Below, piece by piece: positions 6,354 through 15,880 of a stretch of DNA of 64,000 nt. The stretch's first letter is position 1, and every line of letters starts with the position of its first letter. Both the position numbers and the translations under genes were made by a program. The notes beneath the pieces were generated by a model, which made no database searches, was not told where the DNA came from, and worked only from the letters and a program-made list of their open reading frames with translations. The stretch lies in the NCBI GenBank assembly GCA_021154885.1, contig JAJKHS010000045.1, forward strand, positions 1 through 64,000, read 5' to 3'. The stretch is from Thermoanaerobaculum sp. (GTDB taxonomy: Bacteria > Acidobacteriota > Thermoanaerobaculia > Multivoradales > UBA5704).

Positions 6354-8753
6354 TTAGGGCAGGCGCAGGACGAGGATCGTCTGGTCGTCCTCGCGGGGAG
6401 CGTGGGCGGTGAAGCGCGTCACGTCGGCGAGGACGCCGTCGCGCGTCCCTTCGGGGCCGCGGCCGACGTGGCGGGAGAGGCTCGCCTCCAGGCGCTCGAA
6501 GCCGAACATCTCGTCGCTCCCCTCCCGCCGCGCTTCGACGACGCCGTCGCTGAAGAGGAACAGCGTGTCGCCCGGCGCGAGCCGGGCGGTCCGCGCCTCG
6601 ATCGGCAGCACTCCCCGCACGCCGAGCGGGTAGGCGATCGATTCCAGGGGATCGACCTGCCCGCTGGCGCTGATGCGATAGGGATGCAGATGGCCGGCAC
6701 TGGCGTAGACCATCTCCAGCCGCCGCGGATCGATCACGGCATAGCAGAGGGTGGTCAGCAGCCTTTTGCGGGCGGTCTGGTAGACGGTGCGGTTCAAGGT
6801 GTTGAAGACGGCGGCGACCTCGGGGTCGAAGGTCACCTGTACGGCGAGCGCCGACTTGGCCATCGACATGATGAGGCCGGAGGAGACGCCGTGGCCGGCG
6901 ACGTCCCCCACCGCCACGGCGAGACGGCCGTCCTCCAGCGCCAGCACGTCGTAGAAGTCCCCACCCACCTCGGAGGCGGGGAGGTAGGCGTGCGCGATGT
7001 CCACCCCCGCGAGCCGCGGCGGCAGATCGGGGAGGATCGAGCTCTGGATCCCCCGCGCCGTCTCCAGCTCCACCCGCTGGCGCTCGCGCTCGGCGATGCG
7101 CCGCACGTGCGGCGGCACGTCCTCGTAGCGGTATTCCAGCTCCTTGCCGCTGCCGAGGTGGCGCAGGCTGGCGAGGAGCGGCACGGCGAGCAGGCCGAGG
7201 GCGAGCCAGCCCTGGAATTGCAGGCTCCGGTTCCCGGCGGTCAGCAGGGGATAGGCGGAGAAGAGGATCTGGGCCACGAGGCCGGCCAGGAGCGTCGTCA
7301 GCAGATCGGTGGTCAGGAAGAGGAGCACGAGCACGGCGGCGGGGACGAGGGCAATCGCGAAGCTCCAGCCCAGCGGCACGGCCAGGGTCAGGGGAGGGAC
7401 GATGACGGCCGCCACCAGCACCGCGGCCAGGGAGCCCCCCCAGACCCCGAGGCGCCGGGCGGACACGGGCAGAATCCAGAGGACGATCGTGAGGAGGAAC
7501 GGGAAGACGATCGCGATCTCGTCCGTAACCAGCTCGACGCCCGGCCACCGGGAGTCGGCGCGCATCATCAGCGTCGAGGACGGCCATCCTCCCCCCGCCC
7601 GCAAAGCGAGCAGCAACGCCGCGGTACCTCCCGCGGTCGCGAGCCCCGCCATCCACCCCTGGAAGGCGGAGCGGGCGACCGTCCCGTTCGCCAGCTTCCC
7701 TTGGAACAGGGCATCGAAGGCCGCCAGCTTGTGCCCCCAGCGCTCGCGGCAGATCGATTCGCCCACCGACCAGGCGAAGAAGGCCAGCACGGCCGCCGGC
7801 AGGACCAGGAAGACCATCTCGAACAGGACGACGAGCCAGGTGTTCTGCTCGCGGGTGGCGGCGCCGGTGCCGCTGTCCTCGGAGTTCACCCGGCTGGAGA
7901 GCAGCATCAGCAGCAAGCCCAGGGCCACCACCACGAGGAAGATCTGGGCACCGCGGCGCACGCCGATCTCCCCTTCGTGATAGCGCTTCAGGAAGGGAAA
8001 TGCCAGCAGGCCGGCCAGCACGAAGAACCAGACGACCCGGATCAGGCCCAGGATGTTGAGACCCCGGAGCTCGCCCATGAGCGTCTTCTCCCGCGGATCG
8101 TCCAGCCAGTCGCCGAAGCCCGTGAGGCGGTCGCCGCCGAAGGAGACCCGGACGCCATGGGAGCTTCCCGCCGCCAGGGGGTTGCGCCGGTCGCGGTAGC
8201 GCAAGGTCAGATCGGTGCGGGCGGCGAGCTGTTGGCTGCGGACCTCCGGCGGGTCGTAGTGGGAGAGGTCCACCCCCTCCCGGGTCAGGAAGGCGTCGGC
8301 CCGCGCCCGCGCCTCCTGCGGCTGGATCGGCGCCCCCTTGGCCTCCGGTTCGAGACGGAGCTGGAGCCCGAGGACCTTGCCCGCCGGCGAGATCACGGCC
8401 TCGTAGGTCCAGTCGTACCGCTGCGCTCCGGGTGGGTAGACGTGGACCTCCCAGGGGACGAGGTGGCTGGGCAGCTCCGAGTCCCACACGCTCCGGGCGC
8501 GCCCATGGTCCAGAGCGAGCTGGAGCCGGCGTTCCAGCATCACGCCCTGCCTGAGCCGCGCCACCACGTAGGGATCTTTGACCGGCTCGCCCAGATCGCG
8601 GAGGCGCTCGAGGGCGATGCCCACCGCCTCGGAGCGCGAGACCGACCAGTCCCTGGGGAGGAAGGGGAACGCCCGCGGGTAGGCCCAGACCAGCAGGACC
8701 AGCCCGGCGACGCCGGCGAGCAGCCAGAGGGCGAGAGAGCGGGGGTTGCGCAT
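6354..8753 (-). CDS. Membrane-bound SpoIIE/PP2C-type serine phosphatase 1
   Basis: This is a 799-aa protein. It has one N-terminal TM helix (about residues 8-25), a periplasmic-type domain to about 230, then roughly nine TM helices to about 540, and a cytoplasmic SpoIIE (RsbU-like PP2C) phosphatase domain at about 560-799. Metal-binding Asp motifs are intact: EVGGDFYDV, VGDVAGHG, FSDGVVEA and EDDQT. Such enzymes dephosphorylate anti-anti-sigma factors or similar proteins in response to a membrane-sensed signal. No anti-sigma partner gene adjoins it. It is related to the tandem pair at 31888-36536 in domain order. It has its own promoter region, shared with repeat A1 upstream. Confidence 0.85.
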   Translation of the reverse strand: MRNPRSLALWLLAGVAGLVLLVWAYPRAFPFLPRDWSVSRSEAVGIALERLRDLGEPVKDPYVVARLRQGVMLERRLQLALDHGRARSVWDSELPSHLVPWEVHVYPPGAQRYDWTYEAVISPAGKVLGLQLRLEPEAKGAPIQPQEARARADAFLTREGVDLSHYDPPEVRSQQLAARTDLTLRYRDRRNPLAAGSSHGVRVSFGGDRLTGFGDWLDDPREKTLMGELRGLNILGLIRVVWFFVLAGLLAFPFLKRYHEGEIGVRRGAQIFLVVVALGLLLMLLSSRVNSEDSGTGAATREQNTWLVVLFEMVFLVLPAAVLAFFAWSVGESICRERWGHKLAAFDALFQGKLANGTVARSAFQGWMAGLATAGGTAALLLALRAGGGWPSSTLMMRADSRWPGVELVTDEIAIVFPFLLTIVLWILPVSARRLGVWGGSLAAVLVAAVIVPPLTLAVPLGWSFAIALVPAAVLVLLFLTTDLLTTLLAGLVAQILFSAYPLLTAGNRSLQFQGWLALGLLAVPLLASLRHLGSGKELEYRYEDVPPHVRRIAERERQRVELETARGIQSSILPDLPPRLAGVDIAHAYLPASEVGGDFYDVLALEDGRLAVAVGDVAGHGVSSGLIMSMAKSALAVQVTFDPEVAAVFNTLNRTVYQTARKRLLTTLCYAVIDPRRLEMVYASAGHLHPYRISASGQVDPLESIAYPLGVRGVLPIEARTARLAPGDTLFLFSDGVVEARREGSDEMFGFERLEASLSRHVGRGPEGTRDGVLADVTRFTAHAPREDDQTILVLRLP

Positions 8754-8791
8754 GAAGGAGGTACGAGGGCGGGGCGGTGGAGGTTGCTTCT

Positions 8792-8880
8792 CCCTGGGAC
8801 CGCCGGCGTCCCGCCGGCCTACTAACTCCGTTTTTGTAAAAGCAAAGTTAGTTGCCGGCGGGACGCCGGCGGTCCCAGGG
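8792..8880. repeat. REP-like hairpin A1 (27-bp perfect arms)
   Basis: The arm at 8792-8818 (CCCTGGGACCGCCGG...) is the perfect reverse complement of 8854-8880. The 35-nt loop contains a second inverted pair, ACTAACT and AGTTAGT, plus CAAAGTTAG, which is also the end of the element at 5314-5472. The same 27-bp arms recur without mismatch at 38597-38685. It lies between the SpoIIE phosphatase and mdh. Confidence 0.85.
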
Positions 8881-8913
8881 GGCCCGGGTCCTGGGGTCCC
8901 AGGGGTCCCGGGC

Positions 8914-9843
8914 TCACCCCTTCGGCAGCGCCTCGACCAGCGACTTCACGGCCGTTGCCGACTTGTCGAGCTGGGCCTTCTCCTCGACCGTCAGCTTGAG
9001 CTCGACGACGCTCTCCATGCCGCCGCGGCCGAGCTTGCAGGGCACGCCGATGAACAGGTCGCGGTAGCCGTACTCGCCCTGAAGATAAACGGCGCAGGGG
9101 AGGATCTTCTTCTTGTCGTGAAGGATGGCCGCCACCATCTCGTAGGAGGAGGCTCCCGGCGCGTAATAGGCGGAGCCCGTCTTGTAGTAGTTGACGATCT
9201 CGGCGCCGCCGTTGCGGGTGCGGTCGTTGATCTTCTCGATCGTCTCGGCGTCCAGGAGCTGCGGCAGGGGGACGCCGTTGACCGTGGCGTAGCGGGGCAG
9301 CGGCACCATGGTGTCGCCGTGACCGCCGAGCACGAAGGCGTCGACGTCCTCCACCGAGACGTTCAGCTTCTCGGCGATGAACCAGCGCATGCGGGCCGCG
9401 TCGAGGACGCCGGCCATGCCGAACACCCGCTCGCGGGGGAAGCCGGAGACGCGGCGGGCCACTTCGCACATGGCGTCGAGGGGATTGGTGACGATGATGA
9501 GGATGGTCTCGGGCGAGCGCGATACGAGCTGCCGCACCACTTCGGAGACGATCGCGGTGTTCTTGGCCAGCAGGTCGTCGCGGCTCATGCCCGGCTTGCG
9601 GGCCAGGCCGGCGGTGACCACGCAGACCTGCGAGCCGGCGGTGGGGTCGTAGTCGCCGCCGCCCGTGATGCGGGCGTTGAAGCCCAGCACCGGGGCCGAC
9701 TCCATCATGTCAAGCGCCTTGCCGGTGGCGAGCTCGGCGGCCACATCCACCATGACCACGTCGGCCAGGTCCGCCTGGGCGATCAGTTGGGCGCAGGTCG
9801 CGCCCACATTGCCGGCGCCCACCACGGTGACTTTGTATCGCAT
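8914..9843 (-). CDS. mdh: Malate dehydrogenase
   Basis: This 309-aa enzyme oxidises malate to oxaloacetate with NAD in the TCA cycle. The start ATG at 9841-9843 lies 8 nt after GGGAG; an in-frame ATG 21 nt upstream is less well placed. The N-terminal Rossmann motif is VVGAGNVGATCA. The LDH-like MDH signatures are all present: TAGLARKPGMSR with the substrate-binding Arg pair, VTNPLDAMCEV, GMAGVLDAARMRWFIAEKL, and the catalytic GGHGDTMVPLPR with His. The length and motifs fit the tetrameric bacterial type. It is 22 bp downstream of icd on the same strand, making an icd-mdh unit. Confidence 0.95.
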   Translation of the reverse strand: MRYKVTVVGAGNVGATCAQLIAQADLADVVMVDVAAELATGKALDMMESAPVLGFNARITGGGDYDPTAGSQVCVVTAGLARKPGMSRDDLLAKNTAIVSEVVRQLVSRSPETILIIVTNPLDAMCEVARRVSGFPRERVFGMAGVLDAARMRWFIAEKLNVSVEDVDAFVLGGHGDTMVPLPRYATVNGVPLPQLLDAETIEKINDRTRNGGAEIVNYYKTGSAYYAPGASSYEMVAAILHDKKKILPCAVYLQGEYGYRDLFIGVPCKLGRGGMESVVELKLTVEEKAQLDKSATAVKSLVEALPKG

Positions 9844-9865
9844 CGAAGAATCTCCCAAATCCAAA

Positions 9866-11116
<1,251 letters not shown>

Positions 11117-11240
11117 GGCCCGTGCTCCTCCTGAAGGGTGATGAGATAAGATGGTGCAACGCGCCGGCTGGAACGGGCGCGCGCGGTACGGTATCACACC
11201 CCTGGGAGCGCCCGGCGTGGCTGGTATAGACTCAGGAGCC

Positions 11241-11558
11241 ATGACCATCCAGGCCCCGAGCTCCCGCGTCCGTCTACCTTTCGACGCCCTGGATGCGTTC
11301 TGTCGCAAGTGGCAGGTCCGGGAGCTTGCCCTCTTCGGCTCGGTCCTGCGGGAAGACTTCTCGCCGGAAAGTGACGTGGACGTGCTGGTGACCTTCGATC
11401 GGGAGGCGCCGTGGAGTCTCTGGGACGTCATCGCCATGCGTGGGGAGTTGGAAGAGATGCTGGGGCGCAAGGTGGACCTCGTCGAGAAGGACGCCATCCG
11501 AAATCCCTTCCGGCGCCGCGAGATCCTCCGCACCCATCAGGTGGTCTATGCAGCCTGA
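11241..11558 (+). CDS. MNT-type nucleotidyltransferase (MntA-like antitoxin)
   Basis: This 105-aa protein is a minimal nucleotidyltransferase. The pol-beta motif [18 protein letters not shown] holds the G-S and D-x-D catalytic signature (residues about 32-50), and a further Asp appears in KVDLVEK. In MNT-HEPN modules this enzyme adds AMP to the HEPN toxin and silences it. Start ATG 11241 has AGGAG upstream and also a TATAGA -10 box at 11225-11230, only 10 nt before the ATG. The downstream gene overlaps by 11 nt and is a HEPN remnant (11548-11652), so this antitoxin appears to have lost its functional toxin. Confidence 0.85.
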
Positions 11559-11652
11559 GGAGAGGGATGCGGCCTATCTCTGGGTTGTCGAGGAGGATCT
11601 GCCAGGGCTCGCCCAAGCTCTCGAAAAGTTGATCTCCTTGGAAACGGCTTGA
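11548..11652 (+). pseudogene. HEPN (HepT-like) toxin with internal deletion
   Basis: This 34-codon frame begins 11 nt inside the end of the MNT gene, the usual overlap for MNT-HEPN pairs. Its first residues ([12 protein letters not shown]) match the usual N-terminus of HepT/DUF86 proteins, while the rest (VVEEDLPGLAQALEKLI) matches their C-terminus. About 70-90 central residues, including the Arg-x4-6-His RNase motif, are absent. The two parts join at the sequence LW, which occurs near both family ends, so a short-homology deletion is plausible. It keeps the frame and may still be translated, but cannot be an active HEPN nuclease. Family comparison is from memory. Confidence 0.6.
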
Positions 11653-11667
11653 CGCGAGGACTGCCCC

Positions 11668-12552
11668 TTGCGTCTCCTTCTCCTCTTCCTCGTGCTCGCC
11701 GCCGTCGCCCTCGCCGGCACCCCCTCGGGCGACGTCCGCCAGGAGCTCCTGCGACTCGTCAATCAGGAGCGGCAGGCGGCTGGATCGCCTCCCTTGCGCC
11801 TCTCCCCCGCCCTCTCCCAGGTGGCGCAGTGGCACGCCGGGGAGATCGCCCATCGCATCGGCTCGCTGCGGCTGCCGGCCAACACCACCGACGCCCTCGA
11901 CGAGCGGATCAGGCGGGCGGGCTACGTCGCCCACCAGTGGACCGAGAGCCTCCAGGCCTCCAGCCAGGATGTCGCGACCGTGCTGCGCCACTGGCGGCAG
12001 CGCGATGCCGAAACCTTCCGCAAGCTCCTCGATCCCCAGGTGCGGGACCTCGGGCTCGGCGTCGACCGGCTCGACGGCATGCCCCTCTACGTCTTCCTCT
12101 ACGCCGTGCCCGAGGCCGAGCACTTCGCCCGCCAGACCCAGGGCCTGCGCGACCTCGGCCAGGTGCGGGCTGCCGTCCTGGCCGCCGTCAACGCCGAGCG
12201 CCAGCGGGCCGGCGTGCCTCCCCTCAGCGCCAACTCCAAGCTGGATCAGGCCGCCCAGCGCCACGCCGAGGACATGCTGGCCCGCCACTACTTCGCCCAC
12301 GAGAGCCCCGAGGGCCACACCATCCGCGAGCGCGCGAAAGACGCCGGCTACGACTGGCGGGCCATCGGCGAGAACATCGCGGAGGGTCAGACCTCGGTCG
12401 CCGAGGTGATGAGCACCTGGATGCACAGCCCCGGGCACCGCCGCAACATTCTCAGCCGCGACTTCAAGGAGCTGGGCACCGGCCTCGCCCTGGGCCCGAG
12501 CGGCGGCGGCTACCAGGTGGAGTGGGTGCAGGATTTCGGGACGCGGAAATAG
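11668..12552 (+). CDS. Secreted protein with two CAP/SCP domains
   Basis: This 294-aa protein starts with TTG (11668) behind GAGG; residues 1-16 form a signal peptide. Residues about 22-150 resemble a degenerate CAP domain (LLRLVNQERQAAGSPPLRLSP, VAQWHAGEIA), and residues 165-293 are a full one: VNAERQRAGVPPLS, HAEDMLARHYFAHESPEG, GENIAEG, MHSPGHRRNIL, YQVEWVQDFG. The conserved His and Glu of the CAP cavity are present in the second copy. CAP proteins in bacteria are extracellular and of varied, mostly unknown function. Duplication of the domain is the notable feature. It ends 7 bp before the stop of the convergent two-TM gene. Confidence 0.85.
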   Translation: MRLLLLFLVLAAVALAGTPSGDVRQELLRLVNQERQAAGSPPLRLSPALSQVAQWHAGEIAHRIGSLRLPANTTDALDERIRRAGYVAHQWTESLQASSQDVATVLRHWRQRDAETFRKLLDPQVRDLGLGVDRLDGMPLYVFLYAVPEAEHFARQTQGLRDLGQVRAAVLAAVNAERQRAGVPPLSANSKLDQAAQRHAEDMLARHYFAHESPEGHTIRERAKDAGYDWRAIGENIAEGQTSVAEVMSTWMHSPGHRRNILSRDFKELGTGLALGPSGGGYQVEWVQDFGTRK

Positions 12553-12559
12553 GGGCGGA

Positions 12560-12949
12560 TCAGCGCAGTTGCAGATAGGCCGCGACGGCGGCGAGGCCGA
12601 GCGGCAGGTGCAGCCCCCAGACCGCGGGTCTCCCGAGCGCCGCGATCCAGTCGCCCAGCGCCAGGGGTCCAGGGCTCATCACGAAGCTCGGGGCAGCCGC
12701 CTTGATGGCGTCCTCCCACAGCTTGCGGAACTTCCTTTCCAGCGCCAGGAAATAGCCGTCCAGCCCCCAGAGCGCCAGCACGGGCACCAGGGCCACCAGG
12801 GCCATCGCCGCCTTCGCGTCCCTGGCCGCGAGGCCCAGGATGGCCGAGGTCAGCGTCACACTCCACCCCTTAAGCAGGAACGAGTTGGTGGCCATCCGTG
12901 AGGTCGCCGCCTGGAGCAGGTCGAAGTACTTCAGCCGGTCGTCCGCCAT
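12560..12949 (-). CDS. Two-TM protein, SLATT-like candidate effector
   Basis: This 129-aa protein starts at ATG 12947-12949 behind AGGAGG. An N-terminal helix (KYFDLLQAATSRMATNSFLLKG) precedes two TM helices (about residues 28-45 and 47-65), and the second runs into a charged helix, LDGYFLALERKFRKLWED. This order of helix, 2TM and basic helix with an ER.FR motif is that of SLATT-type pore-forming effectors found next to nucleotide-sensing proteins. A third hydrophobic stretch at the C-terminus (VWGLHLPLGLAAVAAYL) may be another TM segment. It begins 24 bp after the SLOG gene in the same operon. The effector role is inference. Confidence 0.65.
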   Translation of the reverse strand: MADDRLKYFDLLQAATSRMATNSFLLKGWSVTLTSAILGLAARDAKAAMALVALVPVLALWGLDGYFLALERKFRKLWEDAIKAAAPSFVMSPGPLALGDWIAALGRPAVWGLHLPLGLAAVAAYLQLR

Positions 12950-12973
12950 CTCGTCCTCCTTTAGATAAATCAG

Positions 12974-13765
12974 CTAGATCAGCTCGTGAACGAGGACCTG
13001 CACGATGAGGGGATAGGGGATCACGGGCCGATCCCCCTCACGGGACCTCAGCTCCCCATGTTCCTTCAGAGGGTTCATGACCTCCGTGTCGATGGCCCGC
13101 ACGCCGGGCTCGCGGCGCTCGACCAGCCGGGCCGCAGCGCCGCCCGTCGTGGCCAGAGCATAGACCGGCGCGTCCTGCCGGAGCTCGCGGAAGATCCGGA
13201 GCTCGTCGAAGATTCCCTGCATGCCGCCGATGGCGACCATGGCGACGGGCTGCATCTCGCCGATCATCCGCCGGCGCATCTCCTCCATGCTCCCGGGGCA
13301 GGGGGGTTCGTCGCGAGGCGCCTCGGGGTCGAAGCGCTCGCCGTCGACCGCGTCGATCCAATGGAGGTTGGCATAGCCTAGGCGGAACATCATCAGCGTT
13401 TCGTCCGGCAGGAACCCCTCGAAGGCCCGGGACTGGTAGATCTCGATGGGGACGGCCGGCGGCCGTTCCCGCCGCCCGTCCGCCTCGGCCCCGAGGGGGG
13501 CAAGGTACTCGCCGGCCACCATGGCCACCAGGGGCGAGATGGCGGGATGGCCGCCGAAGACCAGGGTCCCGCCTTCCACGAAGACGGCCCGGGAGAGACT
13601 GATGACGGCGTCCTCGATCTGCCGGTGGGCGTCCGCGCCGCCGTAGAACTGCGGCCGCTCCCGGGTGGGAACGCTGGCGGAGAGGAACAGCCGCTGCCCA
13701 CGCAGCCGGCCGCCCTCCAGCCGCGCGTCTTTCCCCGTCATATCCCCCGTCATAGGCCCCGTCAC
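12974..13765 (-). CDS. SLOG-domain protein (candidate nucleotide sensor)
   Basis: This is a 263-aa protein from GTG 13763-13765, which overlaps the TIR stop as GTGA; in-frame ATGs at 13753 and 13741 are alternatives. The core is a Rossmann-like SLOG domain: RLFLSASVP at about 25-33, EGGTLVFGGHPAISPLVAMVA at 64-84, and GGMQGIFDELRIF at 180-192, the glycine loop plus acidic residue typical of SLOG/LOG nucleotide-binding sites. SLOG domains of Thoeris ThsA bind TIR-made cyclic ADP-ribose isomers. Here the domain stands alone, between a TIR gene upstream and a two-TM protein downstream, so it may relay a signal to the membrane effector. Sensor role is inferred from family and context. Confidence 0.75.
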   Translation of the reverse strand: MTGPMTGDMTGKDARLEGGRLRGQRLFLSASVPTRERPQFYGGADAHRQIEDAVISLSRAVFVEGGTLVFGGHPAISPLVAMVAGEYLAPLGAEADGRRERPPAVPIEIYQSRAFEGFLPDETLMMFRLGYANLHWIDAVDGERFDPEAPRDEPPCPGSMEEMRRRMIGEMQPVAMVAIGGMQGIFDELRIFRELRQDAPVYALATTGGAAARLVERREPGVRAIDTEVMNPLKEHGELRSREGDRPVIPYPLIVQVLVHELI

Positions 13766-15027
13766 AGCTCACCTCGCGCCATCCGCCCGGCGGCTTCCAT
13801 GAGGTGCCCCTCGTCGACCAGCGCGATCTGGCAGAGGCCGGCCAGCCAGCCCGTCCGCTGCATGCGCAGGGGCTCCATCAGACGGGAGAGGCCGATCACC
13901 ACCCCCCGCACCGGCGCCCGGGCGTATTGGGAGGTGGTCTGGAAGTCCGGCAGCTCGGGAGGGCGCGGCGTCAGCCAGACCCGGTACTCCAGGGACTTCT
14001 CCCGGATCGGTACGTGCAGGATGCCGTACTCGTCGAAGAAGTGGCCGTAGACCTTCTCGCGCCAGAGGGCGCCCTGGAGCGACAGCCGCAAGGCCTGCCG
14101 CCGCTGCACCAGCGCCCGGTCGTGCTCCCGCTTGACCCGCTCGACCACGTCCCTCAGGACCTCGGGCTCCAGCACCGCCGACGCCGAGAAGGAGCCGCCC
14201 GCGAAGTCGCCGGCCGAGAGGTGCCGGCGCACCGACTCGTCGATCCCGGGCGCCGGTCGGCCCCCCGGCGGCTGGAGGGCGAAGAGGCCCAGCCCACACG
14301 TCTTCGCCACGTTGATCTCGTACAGGGTCCACTCCGAGTCGAGGATACCCGCCGACTCCAGCAGCAGGACCATGGATTTGTCGCCCAGCTCCTGGGTGAG
14401 ACGGGTCTGGAAGTCGACGCCGGGAGCGATCCGGAAGTGGTCCAGGAAGACGTCGAAATTTTCGTGCGCCAGCGCGTCGAAGAGCTGGATGGCGAGGGCC
14501 GCGGACTCCTTCTGACGGTAGCTGATGAAGATCCGCGCGCTCTCGGAGGTCAGTCCAGCCAGGGCGAAGATGGCGGGCAGCGCCTCGGCGATGGAGCGCG
14601 ACCAGAACTCGACGTTGAAGCGGCGGAATCCCGGCGGCAGGAGCGTCGTCACTCCTTGCCGGGCGGCGAGGGGAAAGACCGGCAGGGTCAGGTGGAGGGG
14701 CTCCAGGGCGAGCCAGGGAGCGAACCAGGGCTTCTCCTCCAGGGCCGCCGTTTCGCTCCCCACCAGCAGCAGCACCTTGCGGCAGGAGGGCTCCAGACGG
14801 GCCAGGTCCTCACCAGGCCGGTCCTCCTTCTTCACCTCCGGCGCCAGGGCCTCGATCTCCCGGATCAGCTCCTCGCGCAGCGCCACGGCGTGGGTGATCG
14901 CGTCGGGCGAGCCGCCGTGCGCCAGGACGATCCGGATGGGATTGACGATCGGCAGGCCGGTGAAGCCGGCACACGCGAAGCCCCCGTCCTCCTCTTCCCA
15001 CTGCAGAATGACGGGAACGGGGCTCAT
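13762..15027 (-). CDS. TIR-domain protein (candidate NADase)
   Basis: This is a 421-aa protein starting at ATG 15025-15027. The N-terminal 160 residues are unassigned. A TIR domain occupies about 164-300: SARIFISYRQKESAALAIQLFDAL (box 1), FDVFLDHFRIAPGVDFQTRL, MVLLLESAGILDSEWTLYEI. The Glu at about 237 in EWTLYEI sits where the catalytic Glu of NAD-cleaving TIRs lies. The C-terminal 120 residues are another unassigned domain. Its stop overlaps the SLOG gene start, so the two are translationally coupled. TIR enzymes in defence cleave NAD or make a cyclic nucleotide signal. A SirB1-like gene ends 19 bp upstream on the same strand. No strong ribosome site is visible. Confidence 0.8.
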   Translation of the reverse strand: MSPVPVILQWEEEDGGFACAGFTGLPIVNPIRIVLAHGGSPDAITHAVALREELIREIEALAPEVKKEDRPGEDLARLEPSCRKVLLLVGSETAALEEKPWFAPWLALEPLHLTLPVFPLAARQGVTTLLPPGFRRFNVEFWSRSIAEALPAIFALAGLTSESARIFISYRQKESAALAIQLFDALAHENFDVFLDHFRIAPGVDFQTRLTQELGDKSMVLLLESAGILDSEWTLYEINVAKTCGLGLFALQPPGGRPAPGIDESVRRHLSAGDFAGGSFSASAVLEPEVLRDVVERVKREHDRALVQRRQALRLSLQGALWREKVYGHFFDEYGILHVPIREKSLEYRVWLTPRPPELPDFQTTSQYARAPVRGVVIGLSRLMEPLRMQRTGWLAGLCQIALVDEGHLMEAAGRMARGEL

Positions 15028-15046
15028 GGTGTTTGCTTTGAATGCC

Positions 15047-15880
15047 TCAATGCACCTGCGCCATCCGTCGCCGCGCCTCCACCAGCAGCTCCTCCACCGC
15101 TTCGGTGTCCGGGGCTTCGGGCTCCAGGGCGAGGTAGCGCTCGAGGTCCTCGATTCCCCGTTGCGGGTCGGCCCAGCGCAGGGAGAGGAGGCCGCGGTCG
15201 CGGCGGGCGCCGACATCGTCGGGATCGAGGAGCAGCACGCGATCCAGCACCCCGATCACCCGCAGGGGCTCGCTCTGATTGAGGTAGATCCCCCGCAGGT
15301 TGTTGAGCATGCGCACCAGAATCTGCCGCGGGCTCGACGGCCGCAGCAGGCGGGAGTCGAAGGGGAGCGAGCCGCCGCTCAGCTTCTCCAGCATCTGGCG
15401 GCAGTCCTCCTCGGTCAGCAGGCGGCCGTGGTCGAAAGGATCGAGGAGGAGCCGGGGCTGGGCCGAGTGCCGCAGCAGGAAGTGGCCGGGAAAGCCCACC
15501 CCCACCAGCGGCACGCCCGCCCGCCGGCCCACCTCCATGTAGACCAGTGCCAGGGTGATGGGGATGCCCAGCCCGCGGTCCAGCACCTCGTTGAGGAAGC
15601 TGTTGCGGGGGTCGTAGTAGTCCTCGGCGTTGCCCCGCAGGCCGACCTCGCCGGAGAGGAAATCGGCCAGGCGCTCCACCCGGCCGAGCTCGTCCTCCAC
15701 CCCCTGGAGGCGGGGGCGCAGGCGCTCCCCCATCTCGTCCAGGCGGGCCAGCCAGGCGGACGGGTCGAGACCCGGCTGCTCCTCGGCGGCGATCCACAGC
15801 GCCGCCTCCGCCAGGTCGATGCGCTCGTCCGGGAGAACGGCGATGGCCGCGAAGCGGTCGCGAGGGGATTCCATATCCAT
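15047..15880 (-). CDS. SirB1-family transglutaminase-like/TPR protein
   Basis: This 277-aa cytoplasmic protein has the SirB1 layout: a transglutaminase-like domain (NSFLNEVLDRGLGIPITLALVYMEVGRRAG and VGFPGHFLLRH) followed by a short TPR-like tail (GVLDRVLLLDPDDVGARRDRGLL, DLERYLALEP). The usual Cys of active transglutaminases is not obvious, as in other SirB1 proteins, whose molecular role is poorly known. Start ATG 15878-15880 is chosen; a second ATG lies six bases downstream. It is upstream of the TIR gene by 19 bp and may be co-transcribed with the defence-like operon, but SirB1 genes are common housekeeping neighbours elsewhere. Confidence 0.85.
   Translation of the reverse strand: MDMESPRDRFAAIAVLPDERIDLAEAALWIAAEEQPGLDPSAWLARLDEMGERLRPRLQGVEDELGRVERLADFLSGEVGLRGNAEDYYDPRNSFLNEVLDRGLGIPITLALVYMEVGRRAGVPLVGVGFPGHFLLRHSAQPRLLLDPFDHGRLLTEEDCRQMLEKLSGGSLPFDSRLLRPSSPRQILVRMLNNLRGIYLNQSEPLRVIGVLDRVLLLDPDDVGARRDRGLLSLRWADPQRGIEDLERYLALEPEAPDTEAVEELLVEARRRMAQVH

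What the first reader, a model, noticed from the sequence alone, without database searches (positions are those of the whole stretch)
12560..15027. TIR - SLOG - two-TM operon: candidate Thoeris-like defence with a split sensor and a membrane effector
Seen: three tightly coupled minus-strand genes (GTGA overlap TIR/SLOG, 24-bp gap SLOG/2TM) coding for a 421-aa TIR protein with an apparent catalytic Glu (EWTLYEI), a free-standing SLOG domain with GG and GGMQGIFDE loops, and a 129-aa two-TM protein with a SLATT-like end. Known: in Thoeris, TIR (ThsB) makes a cyclic ADP-ribose isomer that a SLOG domain fused to SIR2 (ThsA) detects; type II Thoeris uses Macro-2TM. Inferred: here the SLOG is separate and may hand the signal to a membrane pore, a combination I do not recall as a named system.
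Basis: partly seen in the sequence, partly recalled or inferred. Interest (0 to 1): 0.85.

Follow-up and report, generated by a model that had tools for sequence, protein, structure and literature searches.

The report
Three-gene TIR-SLOG-membrane defence cassette
An acidobacterial genome carries a compact three-gene cassette that pairs the signalling genes of a catalogued anti-phage system (type III Thoeris) with a small membrane protein, taken from a different family of TIR systems, as its likely killing part; it is a new combination of known parts, not a new kind of system.

Summary
The operon is real and its coordinates are right. The TIR (13762-15027) keeps the catalytic Glu. The SLOG (12974-13765) passes NCBI's curated cut-off for "Thoeris type III ThcA", and the TIR is its below-cut-off ThcB4 partner. 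The third protein (12560-12949) is PADLOC candidate PDC-M50A. It has three hydrophobic helices, not two, and no SLATT match. A congener has the empty site: the flanking genes abut with no insert, so the three genes behave as one 2.5-kb cassette. The TIR-SLOG pair is conserved in 13 of 13 pairs examined, but its effector changes: a phospholipase in E. coli, Pantoea, Serratia and others; this membrane protein here and, more loosely, in Arthrobacter and Sulfitobacter. Elsewhere the membrane protein sits beside a TIR with no SLOG. The "split sensor" idea is therefore possible but not favoured: the SLOG follows the TIR, not the effector, although its predicted fold is closest to the cADPR-binding SLOG of ThsA. 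Best reading: the TIR makes an NAD-derived signal, the SLOG binds or tunes it, and the three-helix protein breaches the membrane. Verdict: new variant of a known kind; no activity has been shown.

The parts
13762..15027 (-). TIR-domain protein, 421 aa (TIR core about residues 160-255, catalytic Glu E237); ThcB4-like predicted signal maker
   Evidence: Pfam TIR_2 2.9e-11; NCBIfam ThcB4 158.8 bits against cut-off 220; E237 aligned with the Glu of SARM1's WVHKE and invariant in the 11-sequence alignment
12974..13765 (-). Free-standing SLOG protein, 263 aa, ThcA-like (SLOG cluster3); loops GGMQGIFDE and TGGAA
   Evidence: NCBIfam ThcA 139.7 bits, over cut-off 110; Pfam LD_cluster3 1.9e-24; model pLDDT 83.8, top PDB match BcThsA SLOG with 3'cADPR
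12560..12949 (-). Three-helix membrane protein, 129 aa, PDC-M50A family; predicted membrane-damaging effector
   Evidence: PADLOC PDC-M50A 2.2e-29; hydropathy; model pLDDT 94.6 with helices 2-44, 54-83, 108-128; conserved family with invariant R18, S23, K27, W29, D64, L68, E71, R75
12950..12973 (-). 24-bp gap with Shine-Dalgarno AAAGGAGG before the membrane-protein gene
   Evidence: sequence
12553..15046 (.). 2.49-kb insert between convergent CAP (11668-12552 +) and transglutaminase/TPR (SirB1-like, 15047-15880 -) genes; absent from the same junction in a congener
   Evidence: L093 (G455): genes 8543-9469 + and 9463-10293 - overlap with nothing between; flank Pfam identities

Best explanation
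This is a minimal, horizontally moved Thoeris-type abortive-infection cassette. On phage infection the ThcB4-like TIR would use NAD+ to make an ADP-ribose-derived signal (inferred from the intact TIR active site). The ThcA-like SLOG, always encoded next to this TIR, would bind that signal or its precursor and set or relay it as a partner of the TIR. The three-helix PDC-M50A-type protein would then be gated, most likely through the conserved charged patch at the cytoplasmic stem of its TM1-TM2 hairpin (R18, S23, K27, D64, E71, R75), and would permeabilise the inner membrane, stopping phage growth at the cost of the cell. Shown here: gene content, homology, predicted folds, insertion as a unit, conservation of TIR with SLOG, exchange of effectors. 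Inferred: defence role, signal identity, SLOG role, pore activity.
For: The SLOG is over the curated ThcA cut-off and the TIR is a ThcB4 relative over most of the model. The E. coli ATCC 98082 plasmid locus (TIR, TIR, SLOG-phospholipase, TIR, TIR380, SLOG189, TIR) scores 452 and 252 bits on ThcB4 and ThcA, which anchors the comparison. The catalytic Glu is invariant. A SLOG follows the TIR in all six genome-scan relatives and in every other ThcB4-like pair seen, and the TIR and SLOG trees show the same three groups apart from the long-branched L021. The effector partner varies: SLOG-patatin L037, L072, L073, L119, L121; patatin alone L038; PDC-M50A here, in L041 and in L095. PDC-M50A lies next to a TIR in 19 of 21 viral-contig loci and 9 of 14 acidobacterial loci found by PDC-M50A alone, and in the seven plasmid loci opened. 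The empty site in a congener shows the three genes as one unit. No SLOG-patatin and no second PDC-M50A occur in this genome.
Against: No activity is shown. The contiguous TIR-SLOG-PDC-M50A order was found only here; in L041 the membrane gene is about 1.8 kb away and divergent, and in L095 about 6.5 kb away. ThcB4 is below its cut-off. The cassette sits among housekeeping genes, not in a defence island. Five of 14 acidobacterial PDC-M50A loci had no TIR neighbour detected. Elsewhere PDC-M50A normally pairs with a small ThsB-type TIR, which is not linked here (one unlinked copy at G000:C129).
Confidence: 0.68

Rival explanations
1. Split-sensor relay: the free SLOG is the only receptor of the TIR signal and, once loaded, binds and opens the membrane protein.
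For: The SLOG fold is closest to the cADPR-binding ThsA SLOG. The ThcA profile's best PDB sequence match, 7uxt, E 0.023, appears to be a full-length ThsA-type protein (name from memory). The membrane protein has no soluble sensor domain. The SLOG and membrane genes are adjacent and were inserted together.
Against: The same SLOG is kept where the effector has its own SLOG, and the same membrane family is driven by TIRs without any SLOG, so neither needs the other in general.
Confidence: 0.25
2. The SLOG is a negative element: it binds or hydrolyses the signal or NAD+ (LOG-like GGMxGxxxE loop) and sets a threshold, protecting the cell from leaky TIR activity; the membrane protein reads the free signal itself.
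For: A GGMxGxxxE loop resembling the LOG motif is present here and in most relatives. The SLOG tracks the TIR and not the effector. TIR-PDC-M50A pairs exist without SLOG.
Against: The Glu of the loop is lost in L038 and L039a and shifted in L037, which argues against conserved catalysis. No toxicity or enzyme data.
Confidence: 0.25
3. The two systems are only neighbours: the TIR-SLOG pair works with another effector elsewhere in the genome, and the membrane protein answers to the unlinked small TIR on contig 129.
For: A PDC-M50B-type TIR exists at G000:C129:17043, and PDC-M50A usually pairs with that TIR type.
Against: All three genes came into the locus together and are translationally coupled or spaced by 24 bp. 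No SLOG-patatin effector was found elsewhere in the genome, and no other PDC-M50A.
Confidence: 0.1
4. Not defence: a housekeeping or decayed TIR operon without anti-phage role.
For: Flanked by malate and isocitrate dehydrogenase, CAP, SirB1-like and Lon genes. The genome carries 41 TIR_2 matches.
Against: Open frames, intact active-site residues, patchy distribution (2 of 149 class genomes with a close TIR), an empty site, and relatives on plasmids and viral contigs.
Confidence: 0.1

Closest known systems
Thoeris type III (NCBIfam ThcA NF058525 / ThcB4 NF058526), E. coli ATCC 98082 plasmid locus
   Same: SLOG over ThcA cut-off; ThcB4-like TIR; same gene order TIR then SLOG, nearly touching
   Different: E. 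coli locus has five TIRs and a 538-aa SLOG-patatin phospholipase; here one TIR, no phospholipase, and a PDC-M50A membrane protein instead; ThcB4 score below cut-off
PADLOC candidate PDC-M50 (A = membrane protein, B = ThsB-like TIR)
   Same: Membrane protein matches PDC-M50A along nearly its whole length; a TIR lies in the same operon
   Different: Here the TIR is the long ThcB4 type, not the small PDC-M50B type, and a SLOG gene is added
Thoeris type I (ThsB TIR + ThsA SIR2-SLOG)
   Same: TIR plus SLOG; SLOG model best matches BcThsA SLOG with 3'cADPR
   Different: SLOG is free-standing, no SIR2 domain
Thoeris type II (TIR + Macro-2TM ThsA)
   Same: TIR plus small membrane protein
   Different: No macro domain; three helices with no sensor domain
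SLATT 2TM effectors (Burroughs/Aravind)
   Same: Small membrane protein beside nucleotide-signal genes
   Different: No Pfam SLATT match in 16 family members; a third hydrophobic helix

Membership tests
Thoeris (general) | TIR with NADase-type catalytic Glu | tested here: met
   E237 aligned with SARM1 WVHKE Glu, invariant in the 11-sequence alignment
Thoeris (general) | TIR makes an ADPR-type signal that activates a partner effector; phage protection | not testable with these tools
   needs biochemistry and phage assay
Thoeris type III | ThcA over curated cut-off | tested here: met
   139.7 vs 110 bits
Thoeris type III | ThcB4 over curated cut-off | tested here: not met
   158.8 vs 220 bits, E 1.7e-46; its close relatives L020 and L036 also fall short (184.9 and 172)
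Thoeris type III | several TIR genes plus SLOG-patatin in the locus, as in the E. coli locus that scores highest (whether this defines the type could not be read; source paper not found) | tested here: not met
   flanks are housekeeping genes; no SLOG-patatin in the genome
PDC-M50 | PDC-M50A membrane protein | tested here: met
   2.2e-29
PDC-M50 | adjacent small ThsB-like TIR (PDC-M50B) | tested here: not met
   only copy is on another contig
Thoeris type I | SIR2-SLOG fusion ThsA | tested here: not met
   no SIR2 match
Thoeris type II | macro-domain 2TM ThsA | tested here: not met
   no macro match
SLATT effectors | match to a SLATT family model | tested here: not met
   none at E<=1 in 16 members
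Thoeris types V and above (Yirmiya et al. 2025 preprint) | component list of each new type | not testable with these tools
   preprint not held

The most novel reading that the evidence does not exclude
TIR + SLOG is an effector-independent signal module: the SLOG is an obligate partner of the TIR (relay, co-synthase or threshold setter), and it plugs into unrelated executioners (phospholipase or a sensor-less three-helix pore). The three-gene cassette here would be the smallest complete form, with the SLOG passing the signal to the pore directly.
Probability: 0.3. Interest if true: 0.7.

Novelty: new variant of a known kind. Interest (0 to 1): 0.5.

Why it matters
It links two catalogued but separate TIR systems, type III Thoeris and PDC-M50, and shows that their signal makers and killers are exchanged. 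As a three-gene unit with a clean empty site, it is a tractable construct for asking what a free SLOG does in TIR signalling and how a membrane protein with no sensor domain is switched on by a TIR.

Tried and rejected
SLATT membership: rejected, no Pfam match in 16 members. Fold matches for the membrane protein: none at E<=0.001 in PDB or viral models; its profile matches no PDB sequence; weak 8xMP hits (best E 0.021, 2 of 16 members) were not pursued. Defence island: not seen, flanks are housekeeping. SLOG close relatives on plasmids: none. SLOG alignment too divergent for a viral-contig scan. Literature for type III Thoeris, ThcA and PDC-M50: no paper in the held library; Yirmiya et al. 2025 is not held. 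Atypical base composition: none, GC 0.69-0.71 like the flanks.

Full report
Observation. The TIR stop and SLOG start share GTGA, and the SLOG and membrane-protein genes are 24 bp apart with an AAAGGAGG Shine-Dalgarno. Domain matches are strong: TIR_2, SLOG cluster3, ThcA and ThcB4, PDC-M50A. Two details change. The small protein has three hydrophobic segments and three long helices in a high-confidence model. It has no SLATT match.

Anatomy. The TIR core aligns with SARM1 over the catalytic Glu. F167, S169, Y170, R171, D196, W233 and E237 are invariant in the 11-sequence alignment. The SLOG model (pLDDT 83.8) finds as best PDB match the BcThsA SLOG domain bound to 3'cADPR, E 1.3e-5, followed by DprA, YpsA, LOG and TRPM entries, so a nucleotide pocket is plausible. 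The GGMxGxxxE loop resembles the LOG motif, but the Glu is lost in L038 and L039a and shifted in L037, so binding is likelier than catalysis. The membrane protein belongs to a broad family with invariant R18, S23, K27, W29, D64, L68, E71 and R75. By the helix limits of the model (2-44 and 54-83) the charged ones should face each other at the cytoplasmic stem of the TM1-TM2 hairpin; this is an inference, coordinates were not inspected.

Insertion as a unit. The close TIR is absent from the other genomes of its genus and family that were searched, and in its class only one other genome has one. In the congener G455 the CAP gene and the SirB1-like gene, about 68% and 76% identical to the window's, overlap tail to tail by 7 bp with nothing between. 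In the window they are 2,494 bp apart and the three genes fill that space. Gain here is the simplest reading; loss in the congener is not excluded. The cassette has the GC of its host.

Relatives of the pair. One scan of 84,980 species genomes returned six TIR relatives, and all six have a SLOG directly after the TIR. So do L021, the Pantoea, Serratia and Sulfitobacter plasmids, an E. coli plasmid and a viral contig. TIR and SLOG trees recover the same three groups, apart from the long-branched L021. The partner effector differs: SLOG-patatin (L037, L072, L073, L119, L121), patatin alone (L038), PDC-M50A (window, L041, L095). PDC-M50A therefore occurs in all three groups and patatin in two: effectors have been exchanged.

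Relatives of the membrane protein. Searched on its own, it lies beside a TIR in 19 of 21 viral-contig loci (the other two, L109 and L118, could not be judged; in L118 the gene ends at the contig edge), in 9 of 14 acidobacterial loci, and in the seven plasmid loci opened. Mostly this is the small ThsB-type TIR that PADLOC calls PDC-M50B, with no SLOG. A TIR within 1 kb by chance in this TIR-rich genome (41 matches) would have probability about 0.01 per gene.

Reading. The SLOG goes with the TIR and not with the effector. It is kept where the effector has its own SLOG, and it is missing from most TIR-PDC-M50A pairs. That weakens the detached-sensor idea and favours a SLOG that works with the TIR on the signal, as relay, co-factor or threshold. 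The membrane protein is the most likely executioner, because it takes the place held by a phospholipase in related loci. Signal identity, SLOG role and pore activity are untested.

Known or new. Type III Thoeris is a curated NCBI name for ThcA and ThcB4; the locus that scores best on both models here is in E. coli. PDC-M50 is a PADLOC candidate. No paper on either was found in the held library, and the 2025 preprint that lists further TIR signalling systems could not be read, so the combination may already be described there. On what could be tested it is a new variant of a known kind.

Noticed in passing
L036:3867-5024; L039:2442-3631; L095:5351-6555: A small TIR gene is immediately followed by an Nmad2 gene (PF18753, nucleotide modification associated domain 2) in three distant ThcA/ThcB4 loci: a recurring TIR-Nmad2 pair.
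   Followed up: partly
L041:983-1363; L067:5502-5954; L068:4371-4802: A HIT-domain (nucleotide hydrolase) gene sits between or beside PDC-M50A and a TIR in three actinobacterial loci (L068 by its record annotation only); possibly a signal-processing accessory.
   Followed up: partly
window 11151-11652 (+): Nucleotidyltransferase (PF01909) followed by a short stretch reading DAAYLWVVEEDLPGLAQALEKLI, which looks like a shrunken HEPN partner; a possible decayed MNT-HEPN pair near the cassette.
   Followed up: no
G000 whole genome: 41 TIR_2 matches, many in long ORFs of 600-1460 aa: an unusually TIR-rich acidobacterial genome.
   Followed up: no
L121:1905-8579 (E. coli ATCC 98082 plasmid NZ_CP034659.1): Five TIR genes, a SLOG-patatin and a SLOG in one cluster; RefSeq still calls the phospholipase 'CBASS cGAMP-activated' and the ThcA 'hypothetical', although no CD-NTase is annotated in the 13 kb viewed.
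   Followed up: partly
G000:C129:17043-17513: The only small ThsB-type TIR (PDC-M50B) of the window's genome, without a PDC-M50A neighbour.
   Followed up: partly
L039: Two different TIR-SLOG pairs, from two separate tree groups, lie about 4 kb apart in one Rhodobacter locus.
   Followed up: no
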